A stretch of 64,000 nt of DNA, taken from Allobosea thiooxidans. GTDB lineage: Bacteria > Pseudomonadota > Alphaproteobacteria > Rhizobiales > Beijerinckiaceae. The translations under genes and the position numbers were made by a program. This document shows, piece after piece, positions 7,293 through 36,796 of the stretch. Position 1 is the first letter of the stretch, and each line of letters starts with the position of its first letter. The DNA is taken from positions 124,001 to 188,000 of the forward strand of contig NZ_FUYX01000003.1 in assembly GCF_900168195.1 (NCBI RefSeq). Reading direction: 5' to 3'. The notes beneath the pieces are model-generated. The model worked only from the letters and a program-made list of their open reading frames with translations, was not told the origin of the DNA and did no database searches.

Positions 7293-8318
7293 TCAGGGAG
7301 CCGGCTGAGGCTGCGGGAAATTCCATTTGCCGTTCAGGATCTCGGCGCGCGGGCGATAGAGGCGCACCGTGTAGTTCCAGCCCGGCATGGTGGGCAGGCA
7401 ATTGGCGATCTTGCCGTCGCAGCCGCCGAACTGGATGGCGATGGAGCCGTCTCCGTTCTTCTTGGCCGTCAGGTTGTTCAGCGTGTAGGCATTGTAGGGG
7501 TTCTTCTCGTAATAGCCCCGGGCGTCGTAGAGGCTGACGGACCAGAAGCCGTTGACCGGAACGTCCTTGACGTTGAGCCGGTAGACGGTGGTCCCGTCGT
7601 TCTTCGGCGGCGTCACGTTGAGGTAGATCGCATCCTTGTCGGGATTGCCGCCCCAGCCGAGGGCGGTTCCGATCAGGTGGCGGATCGGGTCGACCTCCGC
7701 CTTGGTGCCGAAGGCCCTCTTGAAGTCCGGGATCGTCGAGCCCAGGACCAGCAGCGCATCGCGCACCTTCTTCTGGCTGGCGGGATCCCAGTTCGGAACC
7801 TGGAAGCTGCCTGGCGCCTTCTGGCGGACCTTGATGCCATCCTGCAGGGCGTGAACCTGCTGGACATCCTTGGGATCGGCAGGGTCGACCAGCGTCCTGA
7901 TCCCGACGGCGACATAGCGAGTGCCGGCCTTCTTGCGATCGATCGTATGGGCACCCGCGCCGTAGGCGACCATCGGAACATAATGGTCCTGGTTGATGAC
8001 TTGCAGCGACATGAAGCGCTTGCCGGCATCGGGCAGGGTGATCGTCACCGGACCGGCATCGAGATCGAAGACCGCGCTGGAATAGAGCGTGTCGCGATTG
8101 AGCCGGATGACGGTCTGATCGTCGAGCGAGGCCGGCTCGCGCCGGTGCGAGAGCTTGCCCAGCCCGGCCTCCTTGGCGAGGTTGCCAATATAGACATCGG
8201 ACTCGGCCCGGATGAAATTATCGACCGTGACGGGCGTCGGGGCCGGAGCCTGCGCGCTGGCGCCGGCAAGGGGCGCCAGCACAGCGGCTGCCGCGAGAAG
8301 CATGAGCTTGCGGTTCAT
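7293..8318 (-). CDS. Secreted DUF1254/DUF1214 protein, shorter copy
   Basis: The protein has 341 residues from the ATG at 8318, with a Sec signal ending near AGASAQAPA. The DUF1254-like N-terminal part includes RLNRDTLYSSAVFDLDAG and MSLQVINQDHYVP. The DUF1214 C-terminal part includes VNGFWSVSLYDARGYY and PGWNYTVRLYRPRAEILNGKW. Only 14 bases separate it from the larger upstream paralog, so they form one transcription unit. No catalytic function is established for the family that I can name. Tandem long and short copies beside a sulfatase suggest they act on the same periplasmic compound. Confidence 0.85.
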   Translation of the reverse strand: MNRKLMLLAAAAVLAPLAGASAQAPAPTPVTVDNFIRAESDVYIGNLAKEAGLGKLSHRREPASLDDQTVIRLNRDTLYSSAVFDLDAGPVTITLPDAGKRFMSLQVINQDHYVPMVAYGAGAHTIDRKKAGTRYVAVGIRTLVDPADPKDVQQVHALQDGIKVRQKAPGSFQVPNWDPASQKKVRDALLVLGSTIPDFKRAFGTKAEVDPIRHLIGTALGWGGNPDKDAIYLNVTPPKNDGTTVYRLNVKDVPVNGFWSVSLYDARGYYEKNPYNAYTLNNLTAKKNGDGSIAIQFGGCDGKIANCLPTMPGWNYTVRLYRPRAEILNGKWNFPQPQPAP

Positions 8319-9993: not shown

Positions 9994-11667
9994 CTATTTC
10001 GGAGTTCGCGACGCCGCCGTATCCAGATTGCGCATCAGCGCAGACACCATCTGGTCGACGCTGAAGCTCGCGGGCCGCTGGCTCGGAGGATATTCCTCGA
10101 AGGTCTTGAGGAAGGGCGCGACCTTCCAGACGCCGTACTGGATCAGATAGGCGTTCTTGGCGAGCCAGTCATAATACTGGTCCGAGACGACATCCGCCCG
10201 CTCCATCGGATCCATGCGGAGGTTGAAGACCTTCGGTGCGCGCAGGCAGGTGAACGGATTGGCCCAGACCACGAAACCGCCGGGCTGGCGCTGCTCACAG
10301 AACACGATCTTCCAGTCGTTGTAGCGATAGGCGACGAGTTCGCCATCGTCGTTGAAGTAGAAGAACTCGTTGCGGGCCGATTTCGGCTGCTGGCCGGTCA
10401 GGTAGGGCAGCTGATTGTAGCCGTCGAGATGGACCTTGGTCTGCTGATTGCCCAGCGTCGTGCCCTTGGCGAGCTTGTCCTTGATGTCGCCGTCGCCAGC
10501 CGCGGCGACCAGCGTCGGGAACCAGTCGAGACCGGAGACCATCTCGTTGGAGACTTCGCCGGCCTTGATCTTGCCCGGCCAGCGGATCATCGCCGGCACG
10601 CGGAAGGCGCCTTCCCAGTTCGTGTCCTTCTCCGAGCGGAACTGCGTCGTCGCCGCGTCGGGCCAAGACCACTGGTTCGGACCGTTATCGGTGGTGTAGA
10701 CGACGATGGTATTGTTGGCGACGCCGAGATCGTCGAGCGCCTTCAGGAGCTTGCCGACATCCTCGTCATGCTCGAGCATGCCGTCGGCATAGTCGTTGCC
10801 CGGCATGCCGCTGCGACCCTTCATCGATTCGCGCACATGGGTGTAGACGTGCATGCGCGTGGTGTTCATCCAGGTGAAGAAGGGCTTCTGCGCCTTCACC
10901 TGACGCTGCATGAAATCGATCGCGGCCGCGGTGGTCTCGTCGTCGATCGTCTCCATCCGCTTGGCCGTCAGGGGGCCGGTATCCTCGATCTTGCCGTCGG
11001 CCGAAGTCTTGAGCACGCCGCGCGGCGAGTTCGACTTCACGAAGGCCGTATCGTTCTTCGGATAATAGGGGCGTTCCGGCTCCTCCTCGGCATTGAGATG
11101 GTAGAGATTGCCGAAGAACTCGTCGAAGCCGTGCCGGGTCGGCAGGTATTCGTCGCGATCGCCGAGATGGTTCTTGCCGAACTGCCCGGTCGCATAACCC
11201 AAGGGCTTCAACGCCTGAGCGATGGTGACGTCGCGATCCTGCAGCCCGACGGTGGCGCCGGGGATGCCGACCTTGCAGAGGCCGGTCCGCAGGCAGACCT
11301 GCCCGGTGATGAAGGTGGAACGGCCGGCCGTGCAACTGTTCTCCGCATAGTAGTCGGTGAACATCGTGCCTTCCTTGGCGATCCGATCGATGTTCGGCGT
11401 CCGGTAACCGACGAGCCCATGCGAGTAGGCGCTGATATTGCTCTGTCCGACATCGTCGCCGAAAATGACGAGGATGTTGGGCCGGGCCTGGTTCTGAGCC
11501 TGCGCGGGGGCAGGGCTGGTCTGCGCCTCGGCGGGCATGACGAGCGCTGCCGAGCCGACCGTGACGGCAGCCGCGACCGCGGCGCAGGCGAGGAGCAGGC
11601 GCCGCCTGAGCGGAGCCTTTTCGGACGGTGGCGCCGCTGCGGAAACAGGAACTGGCAATCCGATCAT
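9994..11667 (-). CDS. Formylglycine-dependent arylsulfatase-family hydrolase
   Basis: The protein has 557 residues. The ATG at 11667 is preferred over an upstream in-frame start because GAGGAG lies eight bases before it. An N-terminal signal/anchor (LLLACAAVAAAVTVGSAALV) is followed by the alkaline-phosphatase-like fold: metal site NILVIFGDDVGQSN, active-site motif SCTAGRSTFITGQ, and the second metal region YTTDNGPNQWSW. CTAGR is a C-x-A-x-R form of the more common CxPxR motif, whose Cys becomes formylglycine through FGE. Exported sulfatases release sulfate from organic esters. Its grouping with the DUF1254 pair and the MetA-like porin hints at a shared substrate. Confidence 0.88.
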   Translation of the reverse strand: MIGLPVPVSAAAPPSEKAPLRRRLLLACAAVAAAVTVGSAALVMPAEAQTSPAPAQAQNQARPNILVIFGDDVGQSNISAYSHGLVGYRTPNIDRIAKEGTMFTDYYAENSCTAGRSTFITGQVCLRTGLCKVGIPGATVGLQDRDVTIAQALKPLGYATGQFGKNHLGDRDEYLPTRHGFDEFFGNLYHLNAEEEPERPYYPKNDTAFVKSNSPRGVLKTSADGKIEDTGPLTAKRMETIDDETTAAAIDFMQRQVKAQKPFFTWMNTTRMHVYTHVRESMKGRSGMPGNDYADGMLEHDEDVGKLLKALDDLGVANNTIVVYTTDNGPNQWSWPDAATTQFRSEKDTNWEGAFRVPAMIRWPGKIKAGEVSNEMVSGLDWFPTLVAAAGDGDIKDKLAKGTTLGNQQTKVHLDGYNQLPYLTGQQPKSARNEFFYFNDDGELVAYRYNDWKIVFCEQRQPGGFVVWANPFTCLRAPKVFNLRMDPMERADVVSDQYYDWLAKNAYLIQYGVWKVAPFLKTFEEYPPSQRPASFSVDQMVSALMRNLDTAASRTPK

Positions 11668-11985
11668 GGCTGTTCTCCTCTGCAAGGGGGCCGCCCCCGG
11701 TCAGGCACTTCGATCCGCCCGGCCCGATCCGGCCGGTGCGGCAGGGCGAGCTTGGTGCGATCGCACAGGCAAGTGTTTGGACGCTCGGCGAAAAGCTCCC
11801 CGGGAACCCATGCCAGTCATCGGCCGGAAGGATGCCTCCCGGCCCCGAGGGGCGTGGTTTGCGAGCGCAGGATCCGACGTCATGATCTGACCTTAAGGCA
11901 AGGCTCGATGCGCCCTCCATCGGGAAAAACCCCCGCTCGCTCCGCGGTTGCTCCCGAAGGCGATCGGCAGGGCAGGGACGCGCCG
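11668..11985. other. 318-bp intergenic stretch, no gene seen
   Basis: This lies upstream of the sulfatase and downstream of the alcohol dehydrogenase, both on the minus strand. I see no convincing coding frame. It should hold the sulfatase promoter. It carries a GGGCAGGG octamer at 11970-11977 with the orientation expected left of dif. Confidence 0.5.
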
Positions 11986-13599: not shown

Positions 13600-15852
13600 C
13601 TACCGGCGGAAACCGCCGTGGAACCCGCCACCATGGAAGCCGCCGCCGCCCCGGAAACCGCCACCACCGAAACCGCCACCGTGGAAGCCGCCGCCCTGGA
13701 AACCGCCTCCGCCGAAGCGCCCGCCGCCCATGCCGCCGCCGCGGAAGCCCTCCATGCGCTCACCGTGGAAACGGCCGATCTGCTCGCGATTCAGGTGAGG
13801 AATCTCGCCTGCACCAGCATTGCTCCAGCGGCCGTTCTGGTGCTGCTGCCAGCCTTGCGGCCCACGCCGGAAGACCTCGCCGTTGCGCCCGGCATAGTGG
13901 TCGTTCGCGCCGGCGCGATGCTGGGCGATGTTGGCACGCGCATTGTCGCGCAGCTCGGCCCGCCCGCCGGGCGTGAGGCCGCCGCGCCCGCCCGGGCGGT
14001 TGTCGATCCGGTTCGCCACCCGGTTGTCGATGCGGCTATGGACGGCGTTGTTGGTCCAGCGGTTGTAGATATTGGCGTGGTTGAAGTTGAACTGGTTGAA
14101 GCTGTTGAAGTTGTTGATCACGACGTTGTTGTGGCCCCAACCCCAGCCGCCGCCCCAGCCCCAGGCGCCGCCAGCCCAGGCGGCACCGGCGATCGCGCCG
14201 ATCGTGAAGCCGGTGACGGCCCCCCAGGCGAAGGCGGCGCCGTAGCCATAGGTCAGGGGCGCGGGATACCAGGCCGAGCCGATCCAGGCCGGATAGGCAT
14301 AGCCGGTACCGTAGACCACCACGCCGCCGGGCGCGGCGACGGTGCCGTAGTAGCCGGGCGTATAGCCGACATAGACCACTTCCGGCGTCGCGCTGTAGAC
14401 CTTGACGTAAGTGACGAAGTGCAGCGGCGAGCTCGGCGGGATCGCATAGATCGCGGCAGGCACTTCGGTCGCGACCGCCCAGGGACCGTTCGGGCCGGCC
14501 GCCACGAACCAGACTCCGTTCTGGACGGCATAATAGGCGGTTCCCGCCCTGATGACCGGGACGGCGGCATTCACGACATATTCGAGGCTGGTGCCTTCGA
14601 TCGGCTTGAGCTGCGGCTTTCCGTCGTAATGGACGCTCGCCTTCGCCTTCTTGCGATCGACGGCGGCGGTTTGCGGGATCTGGTTGTCGATCAGGGAATC
14701 CTGTGCCTGCACCGTGCCACTGACCGAAGCCAGGACCTCGCCCTTCGGGTGGCTGTCCGGGATCTTGGCGAAATCGGCCGGCAGTTTATCGCTCGCGGTA
14801 AAGCTCCACGGGCCATCCGCCAGCGACTTCGAATGGAACCAGCGCCCGGCGATCAGGACGTAGTTCTCCTGATTGGCGACATCGACGATGACATGGCTGC
14901 TGGTGTTCTTGACGTAGAGCAGTTCGGTGTCGGGGACCGGCAGGTATTCGGGCGCGCCTGCGGTCTGGATCAGCTCGGCCGGGGACAGGCTGACATGCAG
15001 GTTCGGGACGGCGCCGGCCTCGACAGCCTCGGCGATGTCCGCCGGTGGCGTGTCGATGAGATTGACATGGGAGCCCGCGGCCTTCTGCGCTGCGGCGAGC
15101 GTCGAAGGCGGGTTGGCGGCGACCGCCCAGGGACCTTCCGGCGCCTTGGCGCTCCACCACTGCTTGAGCGCCCGCAGGTAATAGGTGGCGCCGGCCTCGT
15201 CGAAGAGGATCAGCGCCGGCGTATTGATGACGCGCAGCAGCTTGCTGCCGGCGACCTGCCGCAGCTCCGGCTTGCCGTCGACCAGGACGAGCAGGGCAGG
15301 GGTCTGGCTGAAGATGATCCTGGGCGGGTCGTTGCGGACCGCGACGCTCTGGCTGGTCTCGGCTTCCGATACGGCGAGGCTCGACTGGAGGCGTGACAGG
15401 GAAATGCTCCGCAGGCCGTCGGCCGTGTGCTGGCGCAAGCTGGCCAGAACAGCGTCCGCGCTGCCGGCATCGGAGGGGAAGTTGGCCCTGGTCACCTCGA
15501 TGTTATCCAGCGCGACCAGGTCGCTCTGCTTGTCGACCGAGGTCCGCGCCTTGAACCAGACCACGCCGAGCGTCGGCGCCTCGCTGGCCGGGCGCTTCAG
15601 GGCCACGGCCGCGCGCGCCTCGAGGATGCCGTCGCGCCAGCTTTCGATCTGCGGCTGGTAGATCGTGATGTCCTGGGCGGCGTCGGCGATCACGCGCGGC
15701 CATGCCTGATCGGAAGCGGCAGGGGCCGGCATTGCCGCCGCCGCAGCGCGCGGCGCCTGAGCCCAGACGCCGGACGGCGTTGGCAGGAGCATGCCGATGG
15801 CGGCGACAACGGCGACGCTGTTGCGGAGCCTGCCCTTCAGACTGACTTGCAT
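13600..15852 (-). CDS. Large secreted repeat protein with Gly-rich C-terminus
   Basis: The protein has 750 residues from the ATG at 15852, with a GAGAGG ribosome site and a signal peptide ending in GVWAQAP. The first 500 residues contain at least three repeats of a module ending in GPW: WWSAKAPEGPWAVA, RWFHSKSLADGPWSFT and VWFVAAGPNGPWAVA. Each is preceded by a Tyr-rich strand and a YVxN-type strand. Next comes a Gly/Trp/Tyr-rich hydrophobic stretch (about 540-610), an Asn-rich stretch, and a tail of GGGF repeats ending in Arg residues. Proteins of this look are sometimes labelled carbohydrate-binding family V/XII; that label is unverified. A surface or periplasmic matrix role is plausible. 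Confidence 0.75.
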   Translation of the reverse strand: MQVSLKGRLRNSVAVVAAIGMLLPTPSGVWAQAPRAAAAAMPAPAASDQAWPRVIADAAQDITIYQPQIESWRDGILEARAAVALKRPASEAPTLGVVWFKARTSVDKQSDLVALDNIEVTRANFPSDAGSADAVLASLRQHTADGLRSISLSRLQSSLAVSEAETSQSVAVRNDPPRIIFSQTPALLVLVDGKPELRQVAGSKLLRVINTPALILFDEAGATYYLRALKQWWSAKAPEGPWAVAANPPSTLAAAQKAAGSHVNLIDTPPADIAEAVEAGAVPNLHVSLSPAELIQTAGAPEYLPVPDTELLYVKNTSSHVIVDVANQENYVLIAGRWFHSKSLADGPWSFTASDKLPADFAKIPDSHPKGEVLASVSGTVQAQDSLIDNQIPQTAAVDRKKAKASVHYDGKPQLKPIEGTSLEYVVNAAVPVIRAGTAYYAVQNGVWFVAAGPNGPWAVATEVPAAIYAIPPSSPLHFVTYVKVYSATPEVVYVGYTPGYYGTVAAPGGVVVYGTGYAYPAWIGSAWYPAPLTYGYGAAFAWGAVTGFTIGAIAGAAWAGGAWGWGGGWGWGHNNVVINNFNSFNQFNFNHANIYNRWTNNAVHSRIDNRVANRIDNRPGGRGGLTPGGRAELRDNARANIAQHRAGANDHYAGRNGEVFRRGPQGWQQHQNGRWSNAGAGEIPHLNREQIGRFHGERMEGFRGGGMGGGRFGGGGFQGGGFHGGGFGGGGFRGGGGFHGGGFHGGFRR

Positions 15853-15889: not shown

Positions 15890-16831
15890 TCAGAACGGGT
15901 TGACGTAGTTGAGGATGGCGATCTGGCGCAGCAGCACCTTGCGGATGATGTGCGCGGCCTTGACCCGGTCGGTGAAGATCGCAGCATCTCCCGTCGCGCC
16001 GGCGGGCAGGGAGGCAGCAAAGGCCTGATCGTCGAGCTTGACGCGAACGACGAAGGGGGCCGACTGGATCGCTATCGGGGTGACCGCTGCGCCCGAGACC
16101 TGGGCCTGACCGGTCGAGATCGCCTGCAGCACGCTCTCGACCTGGCCGGGGAAGACCTGGCCGGGCGCGAACTTGAAGGTCAGCTCCACCGGCTGGCCGG
16201 GCGCGATATAGCGTGCATCGATCTGGTTGATCTCGACGCCGATGATCGTGTCCGCCGTGTCGACGAAGGACATGACCGGCGAGAGCGGCAGGTTCGAGAC
16301 GCGCGCGCCCTTGCGCAGCGCGAGATTGGTGACGTAGCCGTCGGCGGGGGCACGGATGACGGTCTTGTCCAGATTCCACTGCGCGCCCTCCAGCTGCGCC
16401 TTGAGCTGGTCGGCCTCGGCCTGACGCTGCTCCACGTCGAAGGCGCGGCCCGATCCCGTGCTCTGCAACTGGGTCATCTGCGACAGCCGCTGTTCCTGGA
16501 GCTTGTATTGCGCTTCCAGCGCCTTCAGCTGCGACCGGTAGGGGGTGGGGTCGATCTTGAAGAGGATCTCGCCGGCTTTCAGGGGAGTGTTGGCTGCCAC
16601 CGGCACGTCGATGACCTCGCCGGCGACGTCCGGCACGATGGCGATCGATTGCCGCACGACGAGCGCCGGCCCCTGTGGCGCGCCCCAGTTCATCGGAATG
16701 AACAGGCCGACCAACAGGAGCAGCAGCACGATGACCGGCGACACCTTCCAGAACAGGTTGAACGGAACGACCCGCAGCTTCACCAAGATGAACAGCAGCG
16801 CGAGGTAGACGTTCAGCAGGACGACGATCAT
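15890..16831 (-). CDS. HlyD-family membrane fusion protein (YiaV-like)
   Basis: The product has 313 residues. One N-terminal membrane span (VSPVIVLLLLLVGLFI) is followed by the biotinyl-lipoyl half-motif PDVAGEVIDVPVAANTPLKA, a coiled-coil hairpin (about residues 105-165) and the second half (VIRAPADGYVTNLALRKGA). The ATG at 16831 overlaps the end of the DUF3302 gene (ATGA), so the two are coupled, as in the E. coli yiaW-yiaV pair. Such adaptors normally bridge an inner-membrane pump and an outer-membrane duct. No pump is adjacent; the DUF3302 partner may be all that is needed. Confidence 0.88.
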   Translation of the reverse strand: MIVVLLNVYLALLFILVKLRVVPFNLFWKVSPVIVLLLLLVGLFIPMNWGAPQGPALVVRQSIAIVPDVAGEVIDVPVAANTPLKAGEILFKIDPTPYRSQLKALEAQYKLQEQRLSQMTQLQSTGSGRAFDVEQRQAEADQLKAQLEGAQWNLDKTVIRAPADGYVTNLALRKGARVSNLPLSPVMSFVDTADTIIGVEINQIDARYIAPGQPVELTFKFAPGQVFPGQVESVLQAISTGQAQVSGAAVTPIAIQSAPFVVRVKLDDQAFAASLPAGATGDAAIFTDRVKAAHIIRKVLLRQIAILNYVNPF

Positions 16832-18420: not shown

Positions 18421-20445
18421 ATGCAACGAGAGGCAGCATCGTCGGGATTGGTCAAGGCCGAACGCCGGCGGCTGTTCCGGGCCATTCGCATTGCGCTGCT
18501 TCTGAGCGCGCTGCTTCCGATCGCCGCCGGCCTGATCTACGCGGAGTCGACCTACCGCCAAAGGGTCGGGGAGGCGACCGAACAGCTGGGGCGGGCGGTC
18601 GCCCTGGCGTCCGAGCACAGCCTGCGGGTCTTCGAGGGAGCGGATTCGACCCTCTCCGAGATATCCCAGATGCCGACCGAACCGCCGGGCGAGGCCGAAC
18701 GCTCGATCCAGCGGATGGCAGCGATCCTGGCATCGCGCCCGCATATGCGCATTCTGGGCGTCACCGATGCCGGCGGCGAGATCAAGGTCTCGGCACCCTG
18801 GCGCAGTTCGATGAACGTGTCCTGGCGCGACTATTTCAGGGTGCAACGCGACCGCGGCAGCCACGGCAGCCTTTACGTCGGCACCCCGATCATCGGTGCG
18901 AAGGACACCTTCTTCAGCGTACCGATCAGCCGCGCGATCAGGAACGCGGACGGCGCCTTCGCCGGAATCGCCTTTCTGGCGCTCGATCGCGGTTATATCG
19001 GACGGTTCTTCGAGAGCATATCCGGCCCCTCCGCGGAAACCGTGGGCCTTCTGTCCTCGTCTGGAGTCCTGCTCACGGAGCATGCCGGCGCAGCACTCGG
19101 CGCCGACTATCCCCATCAGCTCGCGGCACGGATCCGGTCGGCCCAACACGAGACAGCCCGGCAAGGCCATGTCGAGATCGAGGATGCCGATGGGCGACCG
19201 AACATCGTGGCGTTCAAGGCCATCGGCGATTATGGGCTCTATGCCTTCGCAAGCTTGAGGCAAAACACGATCCGTGCCGCCTGGTGGCTCGAGGTCAGGG
19301 AGGTCCTGATGCTGCTGGCCCTGCCGATCGCGGGGCTGGCGCTGGCCGCCTTCATCGCGGAGCGGCAACTGCGCAGCCTCAAGAAACTGGTGGCGGCGCT
19401 GGCATCCAACCGCGCCCGGTATCGGACGATCTTCAACAGCTCGCCGGACTGCAATTTCCTGATCGGTCGGGGAGAGAGTGGCGATGTCCCGATCTTCCTC
19501 GAGGTCAATCAGAACAGCCAAGCCTTCTTCGGCTTGCCCTCCGATCAGCTCGCAGGCCGGGCGGTGAATGAAATCCTGGAACCCGCCGAAGCCAGCTTCA
19601 TAGCGTCGAGCTTCCAGCGCTGCATCGAAATGCGCGACACCCTGCAACGCGAGCACGAGGTGGGGGCGGGCCCGAAACCGGGCCACTGGGAAATGCGCAT
19701 GGCGCCGCTGCCCGGGCAGGCGGGGATCGCGATCGGAAGCATCCGGAACATCGCCAGGCAGAAATACCTGACCTCGTCCCTGCGCGAGCTGACCGGCCGC
19801 CTGCTGCAGCGCCAGGACCACGAGCGCCGCCAGATCGCGCGCGACCTCCATGACTCGGCCGCCCAGAACCTGCTGGCCGCCAGCCTGGAGCTCAAGCTGG
19901 CCGCGGACGCTCTTTCTCGTCGCAACGGTCCCTGGCACGAGCATCTGAGCCGTATCCGGGACTTCATCGACAGGACGCAGAAGGAGATTCGCGGAGTCTC
20001 CTATCTGCTGCATCCGCCGATGCTGGACGAAGCCGGGCTGCCCAACGCGCTGCATTGGTTCGTCGACGGCTTCCAGAGGCGCACGAACATCCGTCTCGAG
20101 CTGAGGATCGGCCATGCGCTGAGGGATCTGCGGCTGCCGGCCGAAGTCGAGATGGCCCTGTTCCGTGTCGCGCAGGAAGCATTGGCGAACGTCCATCGCC
20201 ATGCCAACGCCAGTACGGTTCGGCTTTCCCTCGACATGGACGAGCAGGGCATGCTGGAGTTTCGCGTCGAGGACGACGGCACGGCCGCCGCGGGCGTCGG
20301 CGGTCCCGACCCGATCCGGGAAGGGGTGGGGATTTCCGGCATGCGCGAGAGGCTGATGGCCTTCGAGGGAACCCTGACGTTCCGCGTCTCGGGGCAGGGC
20401 GCAACCCTGTCCGCCAGGGTCCCGCTTGCGCAGCAGGCGGCCTGA
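18421..20445 (+). CDS. NarL-type sensor histidine kinase with dCache-like and PAS domains
   Basis: The product has 674 residues; a GTG at 18406 is an alternative start. Membrane helices at about residues 22-42 and 293-315 bracket a periplasmic sensor of the double-Cache type (MNVSWRDYFRVQRDRG, SVPISRAI). A PAS domain follows at about 340-450 (RYRTIFNSSPDCNFLI). The HisKA_3 dimerisation domain carries His477 in RQIARDLHDSAAQN. The ATPase domain has EALANVHRHANAS and the G-box GVGISGMRERL. Dimeric kinases of this type phosphorylate NarL-type regulators, and one lies divergently upstream. The Cache fold suggests a small extracellular ligand. Confidence 0.93.
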   Translation: MQREAASSGLVKAERRRLFRAIRIALLLSALLPIAAGLIYAESTYRQRVGEATEQLGRAVALASEHSLRVFEGADSTLSEISQMPTEPPGEAERSIQRMAAILASRPHMRILGVTDAGGEIKVSAPWRSSMNVSWRDYFRVQRDRGSHGSLYVGTPIIGAKDTFFSVPISRAIRNADGAFAGIAFLALDRGYIGRFFESISGPSAETVGLLSSSGVLLTEHAGAALGADYPHQLAARIRSAQHETARQGHVEIEDADGRPNIVAFKAIGDYGLYAFASLRQNTIRAAWWLEVREVLMLLALPIAGLALAAFIAERQLRSLKKLVAALASNRARYRTIFNSSPDCNFLIGRGESGDVPIFLEVNQNSQAFFGLPSDQLAGRAVNEILEPAEASFIASSFQRCIEMRDTLQREHEVGAGPKPGHWEMRMAPLPGQAGIAIGSIRNIARQKYLTSSLRELTGRLLQRQDHERRQIARDLHDSAAQNLLAASLELKLAADALSRRNGPWHEHLSRIRDFIDRTQKEIRGVSYLLHPPMLDEAGLPNALHWFVDGFQRRTNIRLELRIGHALRDLRLPAEVEMALFRVAQEALANVHRHANASTVRLSLDMDEQGMLEFRVEDDGTAAAGVGGPDPIREGVGISGMRERLMAFEGTLTFRVSGQGATLSARVPLAQQAA

Positions 20446-21231: not shown

Positions 21232-21263
21232 GGCTTCCTCTTTGCAGGGCGTGAGCGGGGAGG

Positions 21264-21297
21264 GCGGAGCGCCGGTGTCATCTGCACCGCGCTCCGC
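21264..21297 (-). terminator. Hairpin between the two YcaC-like genes
   Basis: GCGGAGCGCCGGTG pairs with CACCGCGCTCCGC, with one bulged base, around a short loop. It starts seven bases beyond the stop of copy 2 at 21304, so copy 1 may be partly uncoupled from it. Confidence 0.45.
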
Positions 21298-22868: not shown

Positions 22869-22982
22869 GGGCTTGTCTCCTCGTGAGCGCCGTGGTGGCG
22901 CCGTGTTACCGAAGAGACTATGGTCAGGACGAGAAGGGCAGTAGCCGCCTGAAATGCTACAAACTGTCCTGCACGCGAGACA

Positions 22983-23903: not shown

Positions 23904-24018
23904 CGCGAAGGAGGTCGATCGAGCTTCACGGACGGTGCAGCGTCGGCTCAGCGCGGCCGGCCTTGCGTGCTGCGTGATTTCGTGCCTCCATGACATGACG
24001 TAAGGGCAGGGGAGGCCT

Positions 24019-24912
24019 GTGAGGAATTTGCCCGTTTCCTCGGTGCTTGGCGTCGCGCTTGCAGGGTGCGCGAGCCTCCCCGACTATTCGGGTCAGGAAC
24101 TCGCGGCCATCGCCCCGATCTCAGCAGCGCTCAAATGCGCGTTCGCCAAGGCGCTCCAGGAAGAGGCCAATCCGTCCGGGAAACGAATCTCGCGCCTGAA
24201 GGGCCGGAGGGTGACGGGGACTTTCACCTTCAAGCTCGTGGTGAGCCACGAGGGGTCCGCGAGCGCCAGGGGGAATTCCAAGATTCTGACCTATGGCTCG
24301 GCCTCCTTCGGTCCGTATCTCGGCTTCTCCCAGAGCGCGAACCAGACCGTGACGACGAAGATCAACTTCATCATCGACCTCGAGCGGGCGGATTCGAGCG
24401 CCTGCGACGCCTATCCGGAATCCTCGCGCGCGAAATACGGCTTCCAGAACTGGTTCAAGCAGGTCGTGACGGGCCTCGACCTCGGCGCAAACCTTCAGCC
24501 AGTGGGGCGGCTTTCGTCGCTGGAGTACCAGGCCGACTTCGGCGTCAAGAACGTGACCAATGCCGGCCTGGACTTCGACGTCGTGTTCGTGTCGGGCAAT
24601 CTCGGCTACGCCGCCACCAGGGACGATGTCCAAAGCATCGCCTTCAAGATCGCCGCCCGTGGAAGCGGCGCGGGTGGGGGAGCGGGACCGGGGCCGGGGC
24701 CGCTGAATTCCGCGCCCCGGCAAGGCTGGAACGGCGCGCCTCGCAGTTCGGAATGGTCACAGCTCGTGCCGGACGACAAGAACGTCGATTCCGACCGGCG
24801 CAGGCCGCCTGCACCTCCACCTCCGCCTCCCAAGCCGCCACCGGACCTTGGGCCGTTCAACGAAACGAAGAAGACGATGGCAGTTCCCGACGAGGAGAAT
24901 CCGCCACGCTAG
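24019..24912 (+). CDS. Predicted lipoprotein with Pro-rich C-terminus
   Basis: The product has 297 residues from a GTG at 24019 that follows a strong GGGGAGG ribosome site. The lipobox LAGC sets the lipidated Cys at residue 17. The mature domain (about 20-215) is mixed alpha/beta with GTFTFKLVVSHEG and NQTVTTKINFIIDLE; I recognise no family with confidence. The C-terminal 80 residues are low complexity: a Gly-rich linker, then APPPPPPKPPPDL. It stands alone, and its end is 112 bases from the candidate dif site. Confidence 0.75.
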   Translation: MRNLPVSSVLGVALAGCASLPDYSGQELAAIAPISAALKCAFAKALQEEANPSGKRISRLKGRRVTGTFTFKLVVSHEGSASARGNSKILTYGSASFGPYLGFSQSANQTVTTKINFIIDLERADSSACDAYPESSRAKYGFQNWFKQVVTGLDLGANLQPVGRLSSLEYQADFGVKNVTNAGLDFDVVFVSGNLGYAATRDDVQSIAFKIAARGSGAGGGAGPGPGPLNSAPRQGWNGAPRSSEWSQLVPDDKNVDSDRRRPPAPPPPPPKPPPDLGPFNETKKTMAVPDEENPPR

Positions 24913-25024
24913 ACTGGTGACGCCGATTGCGGACGGCGCTTGCGGGGGGCGATCAGCCGCCACCGCCTGTCGGTCTCGATCAAGCCGTACGGCATTGACG
25001 AGGGGCCCTGACACGCTGGGACTT

Positions 25025-25052
25025 GATTCGCATAAGACATATTATGGAACCA
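25025..25052 (+). other. dif: Candidate chromosomal dif site (XerC/XerD recombination)
   Basis: The 28 bases divide into a XerC-type arm GATTCGCATAA (9 of 11 identical to E. coli dif), a 6-bp centre GACATA, and a XerD-type arm TTATGGAACCA (7 of 11 identical). The inverted core CATAA / TTATG is intact. It lies in the 164-bp gap between convergent genes. FtsK-orienting octamers change strand here: GGGNAGGG is seen only to the left and CCCTNCCC only to the right, by eye. XerCD at dif resolves chromosome dimers in the terminus. Confidence 0.82.
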
Positions 25053-25076: not shown

Positions 25077-25880
25077 CTACGTCGGCGCCACCACTTCCAG
25101 CCCATCGAACGCCACCTCCACGCCCTCGTTCAAGCGACTGGACAGGCTGGCATAATCCAGATCGACGTGGAGGTTGGTCAGGATGGCGCGGCGCGGCTTC
25201 AGCGCAGCGATGGCTTCCAGCGACTGCGCCAGATGGAAATGACTCGGATGCGGCGTCTCGCGCAGGCAATCGAGGATCAGGACATCGAGATCGGCCATGG
25301 CCTCGCGCGCCGCCGGCGGGATCAGGCTGACATCCGGCAGATAAGCCAGATCCCCGAAGCGGAAGCCGAGCGCCTGGTAGTTCGGCCCATGCTCGACCCG
25401 GAACGGCAGAGCCGTGATCGGGCCGCCAGCGCCTTCGATGGTCTGTGGCCGTCCGGCGGTGATCTGGTCGAGATCGAGGATCGGCGGATAGTAGCTGCCC
25501 GGCGGCGTCTCGAAGAGATAGCCGAAGCGCGAGCGCAAGGAGGCTTCCGTCGCCGTATCGGCATAGATGCGAATGCGCTGGCGCATATGCAGGACGAGCG
25601 CGCGCAGATCGTCGATACCGTGGGTGTGATCGGCATGGTCGTGCGTCATCAGCACGCCATCGAGCGCCGGCACCTCGGCCGACAGCAACTGCTCGCGCAG
25701 ATCCGGCGAGGTATCGACCAGCACGCGGGTGACGCCACCGGGACCAGAGCGCGTCACCAGGATCGAGCAGCGCCGGCGCCGGTTCTTCGGATTGGACGGA
25801 TCGCAGGCGCCCCAGCCGGAGCCCGGGCGCGGCACGCCGCCGGATGAGCCGCTGCCGAGAATCGTGACCGTCAGCGTCAT
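25077..25880 (-). CDS. MBL-fold metallohydrolase (PhnP-like)
   Basis: The protein has 267 residues. It begins with the typical TVTILGSGSSGGVPRPG strand-loop, where the Cys in GACDPSNPKNRRRR is also conserved in the PhnP/RNase Z-like subgroup. The metal motif is LMTHDHADHTHGIDDLR, and later metal ligands are in VEHG, DVLILDCLRETPHPSHFH and TNLHVDLDY. Members cleave cyclic phosphodiesters. It is the last gene of the tmk-holB-metG-tatD run, six bases after tatD, an order common in Hyphomicrobiales. The exact substrate is not known. Confidence 0.92.
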   Translation of the reverse strand: MTLTVTILGSGSSGGVPRPGSGWGACDPSNPKNRRRRCSILVTRSGPGGVTRVLVDTSPDLREQLLSAEVPALDGVLMTHDHADHTHGIDDLRALVLHMRQRIRIYADTATEASLRSRFGYLFETPPGSYYPPILDLDQITAGRPQTIEGAGGPITALPFRVEHGPNYQALGFRFGDLAYLPDVSLIPPAAREAMADLDVLILDCLRETPHPSHFHLAQSLEAIAALKPRRAILTNLHVDLDYASLSSRLNEGVEVAFDGLEVVAPT

Positions 25881-25886
25881 GGCGTA

Positions 25887-26684
25887 TCAGGCGGCCGATG
25901 CCGGTGCGGCGTGATCCATCTTCCAGTAGCAGCGGCGCGCATTCTCCGTCGTGATCCGGGCGACCTCGTCGAATTCGACGCCGATCGTTTCGGCGAGAAC
26001 CTTCGCTGTTTCAGCGACATAGGCCGGTTCGTTGCGCTTGCCCCTGAACGGAACCGGCGCGAGATAGGGCGCGTCCGTCTCGACCAGAATCCGCTCGCGC
26101 GGCACCATCCGCGCGATGCGGCGCAGGTTCTCCGAGGTCTTGAAGGTCAGGATGCCCGAGAAGGACACATAGAGGCCGAGCTCGACGCCCGTCATCGCCA
26201 GCGCCTCGCCGGCGGTGAAGCAATGCAGAATGGCAGGGAAGGCGCCCTTCCCCGTTTCCTCCCGCAGGATGGCGATCATGTCGTCATCGGCCTCGCGGGC
26301 ATGGATGACGAGCGGTAGCTGCGTCGCGCGCGCCGCGGCGATGTGCGTGCGCAGGCCCTGGGCCTGGGCCGCGCGCGGGCTGGAATCGTAGTGATAGTCC
26401 AGCCCAGCCTCGCCGATGGCCACGCAGCGCGGATGGCGGGACAGCTCCGCCAGCCGCTCGGCCGTGACGTCGAGCTCCTCATGCGCCTGATGCGGATGCG
26501 TCCCCACCGAGAACCAGACCGACGGGAAGCGCTCGGCGATGGCGGCGTAGTCGGCGAAGCGTGCGACCCGCGTCGAGATCGTCACTATCCGGCCGACGCC
26601 GGCGGCCTCGGCCCGCGCGACATAGGCCGGCAGCTCCTCGGCGAAATCCGGAAAGTCCAGATGGCAATGCGTGTCGATCAGCAT
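25887..26684 (-). CDS. tatD: TatD-family deoxyribonuclease/hydrolase
   Basis: This 265-residue TIM-barrel metal hydrolase starts at the ATG at 26684, which shares one base with the metG stop. It opens with the metal motif LIDTHCHLDF. Further signatures are VAIGEAGLDYHYD, LPLVIHAREAD, ILHCFTAG and the final LVETDAPYLAPVPFRGKRNEP. TatD-type enzymes are Mg-dependent 3'-5' DNases linked to DNA repair and DNA fragmentation. Cotranscription with metG is widespread in bacteria. Confidence 0.96.
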   Translation of the reverse strand: MLIDTHCHLDFPDFAEELPAYVARAEAAGVGRIVTISTRVARFADYAAIAERFPSVWFSVGTHPHQAHEELDVTAERLAELSRHPRCVAIGEAGLDYHYDSSPRAAQAQGLRTHIAAARATQLPLVIHAREADDDMIAILREETGKGAFPAILHCFTAGEALAMTGVELGLYVSFSGILTFKTSENLRRIARMVPRERILVETDAPYLAPVPFRGKRNEPAYVAETAKVLAETIGVEFDEVARITTENARRCYWKMDHAAPASAA

Positions 26685-28243
26685 CACGCCGCCTGACCGT
26701 CCTCGGGCTCGACATAGCGCGGGAAGACCGCGCTCGGCGCCGGCAGCGGCGCACCGCTCACGAGGCGGTGTTGCGCGCCCAGCGCGGCGAAGCTGCGCGC
26801 CTCGGCCGGGATGGCGAGGAGGTCGAGCAGCTTGCCTGCCGCAACCGGCATCACCGGCTGGACGAGGATCGCCACCTGCCGGATCACCTCGATCGTGACA
26901 TAGAGCACCGTGTCGCGCCGCGCCGGATCGGTCTTGGTCAGGCGCCAAGGCTCGTTGCCGGCAAAATAACGATTGGCCTCGGCGACTACCGCCCAGATCT
27001 CGGCGAGCAGCGTGTGCAGGGCGAAGTCCTGCATCGCCTCGCGCGCCCTGGCCAGGGCGCCGTCAGCCATGGCGAGCATGGCTTCGTCGGCCTCGGTCAG
27101 CGCGCCGCGCGGCGGCACCCTGCCCTCGCAGTTCTTGGCGATCATCGACAGCGAGCGCTGCGCCAGATTGCCGAGGTCGTTGGCGAGATCGGCATTGATG
27201 CGCCCGACGATCGCCTCATGGCTGTAGTTGCCGTCCTGGCCGAAGGAGACCTCGCGCAGGAAGAAGTAGCGCAGCTGGTCGACGCCATAGGCCTCGGCGA
27301 GCGCGAAGGGATCGACGACGTTGCCGAGCGATTTCGACATCTTCGTGCCCTTGTTGAGCAGGAAGCCATGGCCGAAGACACGCTTCGGCAGCGGCAGCCC
27401 GGCCGACATCAGGAAGGCCGGCCAGTAGACCGTGTGGAAGCGCACGATGTCCTTGCCGATGATGTGGACGTCTGCCGGCCAGTAATGCGCCCGCGGACTC
27501 GCGGCGTCGGGAAAGCCCGTTCCGGTCAGGTAGTTGTTGAGCGCGTCGACCCAGACATACATCACGTGCTTGGGATCGCCCGGCACGGACAGGCCCCAGT
27601 CGAAGGTCGTGCGGCTGATCGAGAGATCCTCGAGCCCGCCCTTCACGAAGGAAACGATCTCGTTCCGGCGCGTCTCCGGCGAGATGAAGTCGGGAACCTC
27701 GTCATAGAGCTTCAGCAGCGCGTCCTGGTACTTGGCGAGGCGGAAGAAGTAGCTCTCCTCCTCGACCCATTCGACCGGCGTCCCCTGCCCGCCCAGGCGC
27801 GTGCCGTCTGGCTGGAGCGTCGTTTCCTCCTCGCCGTAGAAGGCCTCGTCGCGGACCGAATACCAGCCGGAATACTTGGCGAGATAGATGTCGCCATTGG
27901 CCTCCATCCGCCGCCAGAGCTCGTCGGTCGAGACCTTGTGGTCAGGATCGGTGGTGCGGATGAAGCGGTCGAACGAGCAGCCGAGCGTCTGCTCCATCTC
28001 CTGGAAGCGGCCGGCGATCCGGTCGACGAAATCCTTCGGCGAAAGCCCGTTCTGCGCGGCCGTGCGCGCCACCTTCTGGCCGTGCTCGTCGGTGCCGGTC
28101 ATGGCGAAGACGTCGTAGCCGTCGAGCCGCTTGAAGCGGGCGATCGCGTCCGCAGCCACCATCTCATAGGCGTGGCCGATATGCGGCGGCCCGTTGGTGT
28201 AGTGGATCGCGGTCGTCAGGTAGAATTTCGGGGCCGTGGCCAT
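26684..28243 (-). CDS. metG: Methionyl-tRNA synthetase
   Basis: This 519-residue class I synthetase has the ATP motif HIGH at residues 21-24 in [11 protein letters not shown] and KMSKSLGN near residue 302. The region between lacks the paired CxxC zinc knuckles of the long MetG form, so it belongs to the shorter type (MetG2-like). There is no C-terminal tRNA-binding OB domain. It charges tRNA-Met in the cytoplasm. It lies 21 bases after holB and overlaps tatD by one base. Confidence 0.97.
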
Positions 28244-28264
28244 CGTCTGTCCGAGAGCTTCGCT

Positions 28265-29335: not shown

Positions 29336-29985
29336 CAGCTTTCCGCATCGATCGGCAAACGCGCACGCAGGATGCGCCACGCGGCCTCGGCGAGCCCCTC
29401 GGCGGGCAGCGTCGCATCGAGCACGGCGCAGCGTCGGGGCTCGGCGCGGGCAATGTCGAGATAGGCTTGCCGCAGTTTGCGATGGAAGGCCAGCGTCTCG
29501 CCCTCGAAGCGGTCGACCGCCTCGTCCGGCTTGCGCCGCCTGGCGGCGCGCGCCAGGCCGATCTCGGGGTCGAGATCGAGGATCAGCGTCAGCTCCGGCA
29601 TCAGCCCGGCGATGGTCACGGCCTCGAGCTCGCCGAGCAGCTTCGCGTCGACCTGGCCGAGCACGCCTTGGTAGACGCGCGTGGAATCGATGAAGCGGTC
29701 GCAGATCACCCACTCGCCCCGTTCGAGCGCCGGGCGGATCAGGCTGTCGATATGGTCGATCCGCGCGGCCGAGAACATCAGCGCCTCGGCGAAGGCGCCA
29801 TAGGACCGGACCCGGCCAGACAGGATCAGTTCGCGGATCGCCTCCGCCTTGACCGAGCCGCCGGGCTCGCGCGTGATCCGGGGCGGGAAGCCGGCGCGCT
29901 CGAGCCTTTCGGCCAGTGCCCGTGCCAGCGTCGACTTGCCGGCGCCCTCCCCGCCTTCCAGCGTGATGAAACGACCCTTGCTCAT
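29335..29985 (-). CDS. tmk: Thymidylate kinase
   Basis: The product has 216 residues from the ATG at 29985. The P-loop is GGEGAGKST at residues 11-19, the DR(Y/F) motif is VICDRFIDSTRVYQG, and the lid region is LARAARRRKPDEAVDRFE. It phosphorylates dTMP to dTDP using ATP. It overlaps holB by one base. A 46-bp palindromic repeat lies just upstream, between it and the carboxypeptidase gene. Confidence 0.96.
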   Translation of the reverse strand: MSKGRFITLEGGEGAGKSTLARALAERLERAGFPPRITREPGGSVKAEAIRELILSGRVRSYGAFAEALMFSAARIDHIDSLIRPALERGEWVICDRFIDSTRVYQGVLGQVDAKLLGELEAVTIAGLMPELTLILDLDPEIGLARAARRRKPDEAVDRFEGETLAFHRKLRQAYLDIARAEPRRCAVLDATLPAEGLAEAAWRILRARLPIDAES

Positions 29986-32936: not shown

Positions 32937-33720
32937 TCTCAACTGCGTTAAGCAGATGATTTATTTGATAAATCGAAAAAGCATCGGGGTTCGCCCCCCA
33001 ACTATCGCCCAACGCACGCCCGCAAGGCTCCCGGATGATGCGATCTCTCATCATCCATTGAGCATTCCGAATCCGATTCGCGCTACGACCGGACGTAGAG
33101 CTGCGGCCCGGAAGCGGGTCTTCCGTATGGCCGCGCCAAGCACTCAAGCCGGTTTGGGCTCACTAGCCCAGCGACTGGCCGCCGTCGCGCGCCCGATCGG
33201 TGGCCTCGTCGGCGCCCTGGCCCGTGCGAAGCCTCCCTTGCGCAGCATTTCGGTGGCCGCTCCGGCGAAAGGCCCAAGGCCGTGAAGCACCAGGAGCGAG
33301 CGTCATCGCGCCGCCCTTAACCGGACTTCCGGAGCCCGGTGCATCCAGCCCCTTTTTCGTCACGTGGGACGAACCGCCAAAATCGCAACGATTATCGGCG
33401 CCAGCCTGCGGCAGAACAGAGCTCGGGCCTTGCACCGAGAAGACGCCGCGCATTGGAACCAAGTGCACGCCGATCGCCAGGCACCGAACGATGCCCTGCC
33501 CCAGCTCTTGGCCGCGACAGCGCCGCATCGATCGACGCACGGCGTCGTATTCGCGACGCAATCATGGACCACCAGAATATCAACGTCACGATTCCCGATG
33601 ATCTGACAATACCAAATCGGAGGTAAATTAGAATGAATTTCGAAACAAAACGCATCCTTCCTCGCTGATCGACTGATCTGTTGTTGGCGTAACCCTTCAC
33701 AAACCGAATCTCAGGCAGGC
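32937..33720. other. 784-bp gene-poor region between tRNA-Ser and the glycan locus
   Basis: No convincing gene is visible. Just after the tRNA an AT-rich hairpin GATTTAT-TTG-ATAAATC lies at 32958-32974. From about 33560 to 33715 GC falls well below the local level. That part has a GGAGG site followed by an 11-codon frame at 33633-33668 (MNFETKRILPR), which may be chance or a leader. I found no second copy of the tRNA 3' end, no integrase fragment and no clear promoter. Confidence 0.5.
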
Positions 33721-34729: not shown

Positions 34730-36796
34730 GTGAACGGCATGATGAAAGCGGATGTGCGGGCGGTCATCCTCGTCCCGGCCTATGGCCAGCCGTCGCTGGC
34801 GGCCGAGGCGCTTCGTGCCGCCATCGGCCAGGAGACGGATTTCGCCTTCGCGATCGTGGTCGTCAACGATGGCTGTCCGTCGCCCGAAATGCATGAGGTC
34901 TGCCTCAACTTCGCGGCGTCCTATCCGGGCAAGCTGTTCTATCTGAAGAAGGCCAATGGCGGCCTCAGCGCCGCCCGCAACACCGGCCTCGAATTCGCTC
35001 TCGCAGCTTTCCCGGCGCTCGAGGCGGTCTATTTCCTGGACTGCGACAACCATATCGGGCCTCTCCTGCTGCAACGCATGGTCGATGCCCTGCGCAGCTC
35101 CGACGAGAGCGTCGGCTGGGCCTATGCCGATGTCGACAAGTTCGGCTTCGCGAGCTTCAGCGACATGTCGGGTTCCTATTCGCCGCTCGAACATCTGTTC
35201 CGCAGTTTCTGCGAGGCCGGCAGCACCGTCTCGCGGCGCATGCTCAATGCCGGCGCCCGCTTCGACACGGCCATGCGCAAGGGCGTCGAGGACTGGGATT
35301 TCTGGCTGCAGGGGCTCGGCAAGGGCTTTCGCGGCGTGCATGTCGCCGATGCCGGGTTTCGCTATCGCCGGCGCGGCGAGAGCATGCTGGTCGAGGCCGA
35401 GCGGGATTTCGCCCCGATCCTCGCCTATATCCGCGGCAAGCACGCGCAGCTCTATAACGTGAAGTCCGTGCTGAGGCTGGAGATCGAGGCGCGGGCGCGC
35501 TACGCCATTCACCACGCCGATACCGGCCTCGTCCGATGCATGACCGCCGCCGGGACCTGCGAGCTCATCGCACTCGACGACTACCTCATCCGCCTGATGC
35601 GCGCCGCCGAGCAGCCCGATTACGGGCGCTGCCCCGGCCATCTGATCGTGATGGACCAGGCGCTCTACGACGCGCTGGCCGATCGACGGCTGCTCGCCGG
35701 TACGTTGTGGGCGCTCGAAACTGCGGTGGTGCAGGCCGCGATCGCCGCCTGCTCGATCACGCTCAGCCCCTCCCCGCACCGGACGATGAGCTGGCGCGCC
35801 ACCACGGTGAACCGGCTCCCGGCGCAGCAGATCCCGGCACCGCCGGCGACCGCCCAGATCCTGGCGATCGAGGCAGCAACATTGCTGGCCCAGCAATTTC
35901 CCGACGGCGCCTTCGCCACCGGCAATCATTGGCACACCGTCAAACCGTTCGGCGGTCGCTTCTTCGAGCTCGCGATCGGCTGCGCCGATGCAGGCGAAGC
36001 GCTGCGGCCGGCCGCCGAGGGCCTGGCCTCCTTGCAGCGCAGGCTGGACGAGGTGTCGGCCCGCGAAGGCCGTGCACTTTGGCGCGCGGCCGATCATGAC
36101 CGATATCGCGCGCGCGCCGCCGTCCCGCGCGATTACTATCCCGAGCTCTTCGGCACGCCGTCCGCCTTTCCTGCGGCGGCATCGGACCGAAGCGTGGCGC
36201 TGGTGGTGGACGAAGCCGGCCCCAAGGCGATCGCGGCAGCCGCAAGGCTCGCAGAGACGCTGCAGGAGGATGGCTACATTCCCCACCTCGTCACCTTCGG
36301 CGAGCAGCTCTCCGGCGAGGCCGGGGATCTCGAGATCTTCCGCGAGATCGTGTCGCTGCCGCTCGCCTCGCTGTGCGGCGCCGGAGCCACGACGCGTCAA
36401 AGCTATCTCGGCACGAGCCTGCCGCGGCTGGACTGGCGCGACGGGCAAGCGGCGTTGGCGACGCTTGCCCCCTATTCCCGCGTCGTTTCGGTCGGGAGCT
36501 GTGTGCTGCATCAGATCGCCGGCGCGCTCCGCCGGCTGAAGGTCGAGACCTGGGCGCTTCTCGCGCCGCAAGAGAGCCGGTCGCCGCTGGATGCGGTCAC
36601 CGCCTGCTCCGCCTTCGAGCAGGCCTATGATGCGATCATTCTGGATAGCGAGGAGATGCTGCATCTCTGCCGGGCCCTCGGCATCCCATCGAGGCGGCTG
36701 CGCCTGTGGCCGGAGATGACCAAGCCTCGCACCGCCGCGCCACCGATCCCCGACCCGACGCTGTCGGAAATCCAACCGGAGAAGGTCTCCGTCTGA
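34730..36796 (+). CDS. GT2 glycosyltransferase fused to a half GT4-like domain
   Basis: The product has 688 residues starting at a GTG with AGGAG six bases upstream. The GT2 domain covers about residues 8-235: FAIVVVNDGCPSPEM, KKANGGLSAARNTGLEF, FLDCDNHIGP as the DxD-like site, and GVEDWDFWLQG. After a helical middle region, residues about 488-670 (ALVVDEAGPKAIAAAARL to AFEQAYDAIILDSEEML) match the N-terminal Rossmann half of the GT4 domain in the protein at 40246. The chain then stops where the donor-binding second half should begin. The C-terminal part is therefore unlikely to be an independent transferase. Confidence 0.85.
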   Translation: MNGMMKADVRAVILVPAYGQPSLAAEALRAAIGQETDFAFAIVVVNDGCPSPEMHEVCLNFAASYPGKLFYLKKANGGLSAARNTGLEFALAAFPALEAVYFLDCDNHIGPLLLQRMVDALRSSDESVGWAYADVDKFGFASFSDMSGSYSPLEHLFRSFCEAGSTVSRRMLNAGARFDTAMRKGVEDWDFWLQGLGKGFRGVHVADAGFRYRRRGESMLVEAERDFAPILAYIRGKHAQLYNVKSVLRLEIEARARYAIHHADTGLVRCMTAAGTCELIALDDYLIRLMRAAEQPDYGRCPGHLIVMDQALYDALADRRLLAGTLWALETAVVQAAIAACSITLSPSPHRTMSWRATTVNRLPAQQIPAPPATAQILAIEAATLLAQQFPDGAFATGNHWHTVKPFGGRFFELAIGCADAGEALRPAAEGLASLQRRLDEVSAREGRALWRAADHDRYRARAAVPRDYYPELFGTPSAFPAAASDRSVALVVDEAGPKAIAAAARLAETLQEDGYIPHLVTFGEQLSGEAGDLEIFREIVSLPLASLCGAGATTRQSYLGTSLPRLDWRDGQAALATLAPYSRVVSVGSCVLHQIAGALRRLKVETWALLAPQESRSPLDAVTACSAFEQAYDAIILDSEEMLHLCRALGIPSRRLRLWPEMTKPRTAAPPIPDPTLSEIQPEKVSV

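What the first reader, a model, noticed from the sequence alone, without database searches (positions are those of the whole stretch)
25025..25052. Candidate dif site with a strand switch of FtsK-orienting octamers
Seen: arms GATTCGCATAA and TTATGGAACCA around GACATA, close to E. coli dif, in the gap between convergent genes. By eye, GGGNAGGG occurs on the + strand at 9106, 11508, 11970, 15294, 16004, 20318, 21257 and 24004. CCCTNCCC occurs at 27118, 27783, 29945, 35768, 39001, 39475, 43364, 44677, 47624, 51965, 52470, 58232, 59938, 62167 and 63577. I noticed no octamer in the opposite sense on either side; the count is not exhaustive. Known: KOPS direct FtsK towards dif. So this window likely spans the terminus.
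Basis: partly seen in the sequence, partly recalled or inferred. Interest (0 to 1): 0.85.

Follow-up and report, generated by a model that had tools for sequence, protein, structure and literature searches.

The report
Chromosome-separating dif site in Bosea
This window likely spans the point where the two arms of a (likely Bosea) bacterial chromosome meet: a 28-letter likely dif site, the only one found in the draft genome, at which all 28 copies of a DNA signpost in the window switch strand, so the cell would use it to cut joined sister chromosomes apart before dividing.

Summary
The 28-mer at 25025-25052 is unique in the 5.37-Mb draft genome. Over the whole 496-kb contig 142 of 151 point at it, and the best switch interval, 148,004-150,245, brackets it at 149,025. 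Of 50,790 one-degenerate octamers, GGGNAGGG is the most polarised. XerC, XerD and FtsK-gamma are present. 59 of 61 genomes of the genus (own included) carry the site; the genus is likely Bosea. Three published Hyphomicrobiales dif sites match at 22-23 of 28 positions. So this is a new member of a known kind, ordinary in itself. Following the machinery led further: Bosea genomes often carry two FtsK genes, one with membrane segments and one without, with unlike heads but a motor and gamma domain almost identical within each of eight genomes compared, apparently through repeated gene conversion. Why is unknown.

The parts
25025..25052 (+). predicted dif site (28 bp)
25025..25035 (+). predicted XerC-binding arm GATTCGCATAA
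   Evidence: same 11-mer in Bradyrhizobium dif, PMC2731167 Table 1
25036..25041 (+). central hexamer GACATA
   Evidence: commonest centre among 119 genome loci (25 of 119)
25042..25052 (+). predicted XerD-binding arm TTATGGAACCA
   Evidence: TTATGGAAC shared with Agrobacterium and Mesorhizobium dif
8031..8038 (+). KOPS-like octamer
9106..9113 (+). KOPS-like octamer
11508..11515 (+). KOPS-like octamer
11970..11977 (+). KOPS-like octamer
15294..15301 (+). KOPS-like octamer
16004..16011 (+). KOPS-like octamer
20318..20325 (+). KOPS-like octamer
20392..20399 (+). KOPS-like octamer
21257..21264 (+). KOPS-like octamer
24004..24011 (+). KOPS-like octamer, nearest on the left (1.0 kb from dif)
26245..26252 (-). 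KOPS-like octamer, nearest on the right (1.2 kb from dif)
27118..27125 (-). KOPS-like octamer
27783..27790 (-). KOPS-like octamer
29945..29952 (-). KOPS-like octamer
33494..33501 (-). KOPS-like octamer
35768..35775 (-). KOPS-like octamer
39001..39008 (-). KOPS-like octamer
39475..39482 (-). KOPS-like octamer
43364..43371 (-). KOPS-like octamer
44677..44684 (-). KOPS-like octamer
47624..47631 (-). KOPS-like octamer
51692..51699 (-). KOPS-like octamer
51965..51972 (-). KOPS-like octamer
52470..52477 (-). KOPS-like octamer
58232..58239 (-). KOPS-like octamer
59938..59945 (-). KOPS-like octamer
62167..62174 (-). KOPS-like octamer
63577..63584 (-). KOPS-like octamer
24019..24912 (+). left convergent gene, 297 aa, no Pfam match
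25077..25880 (-). right convergent gene, metallo-beta-lactamase superfamily; a homologue follows the site within 2.5 kb in 63 of 119 genome loci

Best explanation
The 28-mer at 25025-25052 is the predicted dif site of a (likely Bosea) chromosome, and the GGGNAGGG octamers that switch strand at it are likely the signposts (KOPS) that would steer the cell's FtsK pumps to it so that XerC and XerD would cut joined sister chromosomes apart. Inferred steps: homologous recombination between sister chromosomes sometimes makes a dimer; FtsK at the closing septum loads on GGGNAGGG through its gamma domain, translocates in the direction of the octamers, meets XerCD bound at dif, and gamma activates XerD; strand exchange within the GACATA centre turns the dimer into two monomers. 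Shown here by sequence: the site and its uniqueness in the draft, the polarity and its switch point on the contig, and genes for XerC, XerD and two FtsK proteins that both end in a gamma domain. None of the biochemical steps was tested.
For: Unique 28-mer. 28 of 28 octamers in the window and 142 of 151 on the 496-kb contig point at it; the best switch interval 148,004-150,245 contains it. GGGNAGGG ranks first of 50,790 one-degenerate octamers by polarity score, and first by fraction among those with 60 or more copies (0.94; next 0.83). Polarity does not follow genes: 65 of 70 octamers opposite to the gene, 48 of 50 on the gene's strand and 29 of 31 outside called genes point to dif, while 54% of coding bases are transcribed toward dif; 12 fifth-order Markov copies of the two arms give a mean fraction of 0.75. 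GC-skew maximum 7.5 kb away. XerD on contig 13 and XerC on contig 9 (TIGR02225 and TIGR02224 are the better of the two models for each; both below their curated cut-offs). FtsK-gamma matches gamma domains of solved FtsK chains (2j5o, 2ve8; E about 2e-13). Site present in 59 of 61 same-genus genomes (own included) and 10 of 40 others of the order at up to 3 mismatches outside the centre, with 0 backward-pattern matches in all 101.
Against: 9 of 151 octamers on the contig point the wrong way. The XerD arm matches E. coli at only 6 of 11 positions, though it fits its own order. The genome is a 34-contig draft; polarity was computed on one contig. On contig 12, one search lists 55 of 62 octamers on one strand with no switch; the listed parts of several other contigs are mixed. 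The cumulative GC-skew maximum is 7.5 kb off. XerC and XerD fall short of NCBIfam's equivalog cut-offs.
Confidence: 0.96

Rival explanations
1. The site is a phage or plasmid attachment site or plasmid-type xrs (an integrated element using XerCD) rather than the chromosome's own dif.
For: dif-like 28-mers do occur on viral contigs (112 stretches) and as extra sites in 16 of 61 same-genus genomes.
Against: Only site found in this genome; its centre GACATA is the commonest one at the conserved position beside the metallo-beta-lactamase gene (17 of 63) and none of 112 viral sites has it; octamers converge on it over 496 kb; the genes on the right are housekeeping genes.
Confidence: 0.02
2. The octamer polarity is a by-product of GC skew, codon usage or gene orientation, not a signal for FtsK.
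For: G-rich words as a class are skewed toward the site; Markov copies that keep each arm's 6-mer statistics still show 75% polarity.
Against: GGGNAGGG is 94% polar and first of 50,790 octamers, independent of gene strand; GC skew is weak (under 10% in every 2-kb step); a matching gamma domain is present.
Confidence: 0.03

Closest known systems
dif sites of Hyphomicrobiales (Bradyrhizobium japonicum, Agrobacterium tumefaciens, Mesorhizobium loti; Table 1 of PMC2731167)
   Same: 11-6-11 layout, TCGCATAA and TTATGGAA inner arms, intergenic, near GC-skew maximum; 23, 23 and 22 of 28 identical
   Different: centre GACATA and the outermost bases of the XerD arm (CCA)
E. coli dif/KOPS/FtsK-XerCD system
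   Same: octamer GGGNAGGG, polarity toward dif, XerC, XerD, FtsK gamma
   Different: XerD arm TTATGGAACCA against TTATGTTAAAT; two FtsK genes here; MatP/matS not looked for
KOPS polarity switch at dif on chromosomes and large secondary replicons (PMC13342612; PMC11724359; passages read)
   Same: the same architectural signature
   Different: 'Bosea' does not occur in PMC13342612
FtsK2 of Agrobacterium tumefaciens (named in PMC11527210, passages read)
   Same: a second FtsK in the same order, so the pair as such is not new
   Different: the passages seen give neither its membrane topology nor any homogenisation of its motor with FtsK

Membership tests
dif site (XerCD chromosome dimer resolution site) | 28 bp, two 11-bp inverted arms around a 6-bp centre | tested here: met
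dif site (XerCD chromosome dimer resolution site) | one per chromosome | tested here: met
   one in the 34-contig draft at up to 3 mismatches; the only perfect core CGCATAA-N6-TTATG
dif site (XerCD chromosome dimer resolution site) | at the GC-skew switch | tested here: met
   7.5 kb from the maximum on a 496-kb contig
dif site (XerCD chromosome dimer resolution site) | XerC and XerD encoded in the genome | tested here: met
   (better model XerD for one, XerC for the other; both below equivalog cut-offs)
dif site (XerCD chromosome dimer resolution site) | bound and recombined by XerCD, FtsK-dependent | not testable with these tools
   needs binding and recombination assays
KOPS | GGGNAGGG over-represented and oriented toward dif, inverting there | tested here: met
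   (contig 18 only)
KOPS | bound by the FtsK gamma domain | not testable with these tools
   gamma domain present and alignable to 2ve8 and 2j5o; binding untested
FtsK/SpoIIIE DNA translocase (second, unanchored copy) | alpha, RecA-like motor and gamma domains | tested here: met
   PF17854, PF01580, PF09397 in the G024 copy; the own copy is split over two contigs
FtsK/SpoIIIE DNA translocase (second, unanchored copy) | N-terminal 4TM membrane domain (PF13491) | tested here: not met
   PF13491 absent in the two unanchored proteins scanned and present in the two anchored ones; hydropathy of the others

The most novel reading that the evidence does not exclude
Bosea reads its KOPS code with twin FtsK pumps: one anchored in the membrane and one free of it, whose heads are unalike but whose motor and KOPS-reading gamma domains are repeatedly overwritten by gene conversion, so that two differently addressed pumps keep one identical reading head. 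Other families of the order have the same anchored/free pair without this tight homogenisation.
Probability: 0.65. Interest if true: 0.62.

Novelty: new member of a known kind. Interest (0 to 1): 0.4.

Why it matters
The dif/KOPS finding places the segregation terminus of a likely Bosea chromosome and indicates that the E. coli octamer serves unchanged in this alphaproteobacterial genus; it shows that the terminus can be recognised from a raw 64-kb window. The twin FtsK finding matters more: two DNA pumps with different heads and one enforced motor give a natural experiment on why a cell would need an anchored and a free translocase (as with SpoIIIE and SftA of Bacillus, recalled), and on whether KOPS reading has to stay identical between them.

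Tried and rejected
Gene-strand and composition artefact for the octamers: rejected. Integrated element at dif in this genome: no sign. The ORF 24066-24920 as left neighbour: replaced by 24019-24912 on codon composition; neither has a Pfam match. Distant blastn of dif plus flanks against plasmids: no match. Replicon-specific dif centres as a novelty: in 15 of 16 same-genus genomes with two or more sites all centres differ (exception G030, a draft with the same centre twice), but Carnoy and Roten 2009 already report distinct centres for each chromosome (PMC2731167 section 7, read), so it is not claimed as new. Two neighbour proteins of viral dif-like sites that I took by eye for phage packaging or regulator genes have no Pfam match, so that label was dropped. 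Literature on FtsK gene conversion: 'FtsK paralog' with 'gene conversion' gave 0 papers; ('two FtsK', 'soluble FtsK', KOPS, taxa; any two terms) gave 1,218 papers, of which the 20 listed are off the subject; (10, 3 and 2 papers listed) I opened one, PMC11527210, which names FtsK2 of Agrobacterium; a Mesorhizobium paper with 'ftsK1' (PMC3973600) was seen in the listing only. Subscription papers are mostly not in the library. 'dif site' with 'Bosea' gave 0 papers.

Full report
Observation. The exhaustive octamer search gives 28 GGGNAGGG sites: 10 on + from 8031 to 24004 and 18 on - from 26245 to 63577, with none in the opposite sense. Dinucleotide shuffles give 12.2 on average and never 28 in 100.

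Genome scale. The window is bases 124,001-188,000 of contig 18 (496,245 bp) of a 5.37-Mb draft in 34 contigs. The 28-mer occurs once in the draft at up to 3 mismatches, and its core CGCATAA-N6-TTATG once without mismatch. On contig 18 there are 151 octamers: left of the 28-mer 46 point to it and 5 away, right of it 96 point to it and 4 away; the interval that best separates the strands is 148,004-150,245, and the 28-mer starts at 149,025. Cumulative GC skew peaks at 156,486, with the 28-mer on the plateau. Ranking all 50,790 one-degenerate octamers with 40 or more copies by polarity puts GGGNAGGG first, 142 towards and 9 away; the C form dominates (102 to 7). The polarity is the same for octamers on and against the coding strand (genes called by a simple GC-frame rule) and exceeds 12 Markov copies that keep each arm's 6-mer statistics (0.94 against a mean of 0.75). 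Contig 12, which the capped listing covers whole, has 55 of 62 octamers on one strand, as expected inside one chromosome arm; the listed parts of several other contigs are mixed and were not analysed.

Machinery. Ten tyrosine-recombinase matches occur in the genome. I extracted frames at six of these loci (for two of them the script picked a wrong frame) and scanned only the two best-scoring ones, whose proteins of about 310 aa NCBIfam ranks nearer XerD (contig 13) and XerC (contig 9), both under the equivalog cut-offs. FtsK-gamma occurs twice and aligns with the gamma domains of solved FtsK chains such as 2j5o and 2ve8, including the stretch IGYNRAA. That this helix contacts KOPS is recalled.

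Relatives and identity. Of 101 genomes (61 of the same genus with the own, 40 others of the order) 69 hold the site at up to 3 mismatches with a free centre: 59 of 61 and 10 of 40; the backward control pattern has no match in any. The DNA right of the site is 76-87% identical to records titled Bosea, and about 72% to the Methylobacterium records that come next, so the genus is likely Bosea. In 63 of the 119 loci a homologue of the metallo-beta-lactamase gene follows the site within 2.5 kb in the same orientation, in 42 of them within 240 bp. The left flank is not conserved: in the 40 best alignments listed none reaches left of the site by more than 3 bases. PMC2731167 (section 7 and passages of section 5 read) prints Hyphomicrobiales dif sites, three of which I compared: 22-23 of 28 positions match. 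So the site is a new member of a known kind.

Twin FtsK. Both gamma-domain genes of the own genome run into contig ends over about 1.2 kb of near-identical sequence. Two further contigs end in the 5' parts: one with a 4TM domain (contig 19), one without it (contig 27); which 5' part belongs to which 3' part I assigned by the C-terminal tails, which resemble the anchored and free copies of G024. Of 37 same-genus genomes searched, 27 have two or more gamma matches at E 0.001 (some truncated at contig ends or below the cut-off), 9 one, 1 none; single-contig G010 has one, of the anchored type. I fetched both copies from seven of these genomes whose copies lay in long contigs. In all seven, one copy has 4-5 hydrophobic segments and the other none or one borderline segment. 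The N-terminal parts of the two copies are unalike (41-47% nucleotide identity), but the last 1.4 kb are 95.8-99.0% identical within a genome against 86-92% between genomes (G020 and G032, close relatives, 95-96%). With the own genome as eighth, third-position differences within a genome are 0-8.2%, while the nearest same-type copy in another genome differs by 7.7-19.2%; in seven of eight genomes the partner copy is nearer than the nearest same-type copy, and G032 is a tie (8.0 against 7.7). In the tree the two copies of G020 are not sisters; those of the other seven genomes are. The identity starts about 240-300 bases before the Walker A motif and runs through gamma (seven pairs). The 52 residues just upstream group by type: anchored-anchored 92%, free-free 78%, anchored-free in the same genome 59% on average. 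A tree in which the anchored motors form one clade is rejected (log-likelihood difference 1151, AU p 4e-84). This is the signature of repeated gene conversion limited to the motor and gamma.

Twin FtsK outside the genus. In a sample of 120 genomes of the order, 21 including the own have two or more gamma matches; in two of them (G073, G140) the second lies below the cut-off. I examined pairs from 11 of the other 20: all 11 have one copy with 3-4 hydrophobic segments and one with none, but their motors are only 74-85% identical in protein, against 97.6-100% in the seven Bosea pairs. So the pair looks old in the order and the tight homogenisation was seen only in Bosea among the pairs compared; one genome not fetched, G141, has two gamma matches truncated at the same model position with equal scores, one of them at the first base of its contig, which hints at the same elsewhere. 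A. tumefaciens has a gene called ftsK2 (PMC11527210, passages). My literature searches found no report of FtsK homogenisation. Why it happens is open: selection for one KOPS specificity, mixed hexamers, or plain recombination between repeats.

How it likely works. FtsK at the septum would load on the octamers, move toward dif and switch on XerD; XerC and XerD would exchange strands in the centre and free the sisters. The sequence shows the parts and their order; all the biochemistry is taken over from E. coli and was not tested here.

Side result on mobile DNA. The order's dif pattern with free centre is found in 112 viral stretches against 7 for the backward pattern. None of the 112 centres is GACATA, GGTATA or GATATA, which make up 43 of 119 genome sites. 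A cluster of related proteins near the site in 14 of the 112 loci has a RepC-like representative (PF03428). Two Methylobacterium plasmids annotated with RepC, terminase, capsid and tail genes (NZ_CP006993.1, NZ_CP090351.1) have one such site each, 0.6-0.7 kb from repC, and 39 of 44 and 31 of 33 KOPS octamers point at it if the divergence point is fitted, 32 of 44 and 27 of 33 if it is fixed opposite. For phage P1, PMC11724359 mentions KOPS bias and loxP opposite the origin (passage), so this would be a XerCD counterpart.

Noticed in passing
own genome contigs 7, 34, 19, 27 (L042, L043, L348, L345); L325-L338: Two FtsK genes per genome, anchored and unanchored, with motor and gamma homogenised within each of eight Bosea genomes compared.
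   Followed up: yes
L405-L407 (NZ_CP006993.1), L408-L410 (NZ_CP090351.1): Two phage-plasmids of Methylobacterium carry a dif-like site beside repC, with KOPS octamers converging on it (39 of 44 and 31 of 33, fitted divergence point); if replication starts at repC this polarity would run toward the origin, the reverse of a chromosome.
   Followed up: partly
L213-L324: 112 viral stretches with dif-like sites, 14 of them near RepC-like genes; 74 different centres, none of the three commonest chromosomal ones.
   Followed up: partly
G012, G020, G028, G032, G057 and others: Extra dif-like sites with other centres elsewhere in same-genus genomes; centres all distinct in 15 of 16 multi-site genomes.
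   Followed up: partly
window 25077-31322: Metallo-beta-lactamase, TatD, MetG, DNA polymerase III delta', thymidylate kinase and D-Ala-D-Ala carboxypeptidase genes follow dif; a homologue of the first one follows dif in 63 of 119 loci, while the other flank changes.
   Followed up: partly
window 32847-32936: tRNA-Ser (TGA), the only RNA-family match in the window.
   Followed up: no
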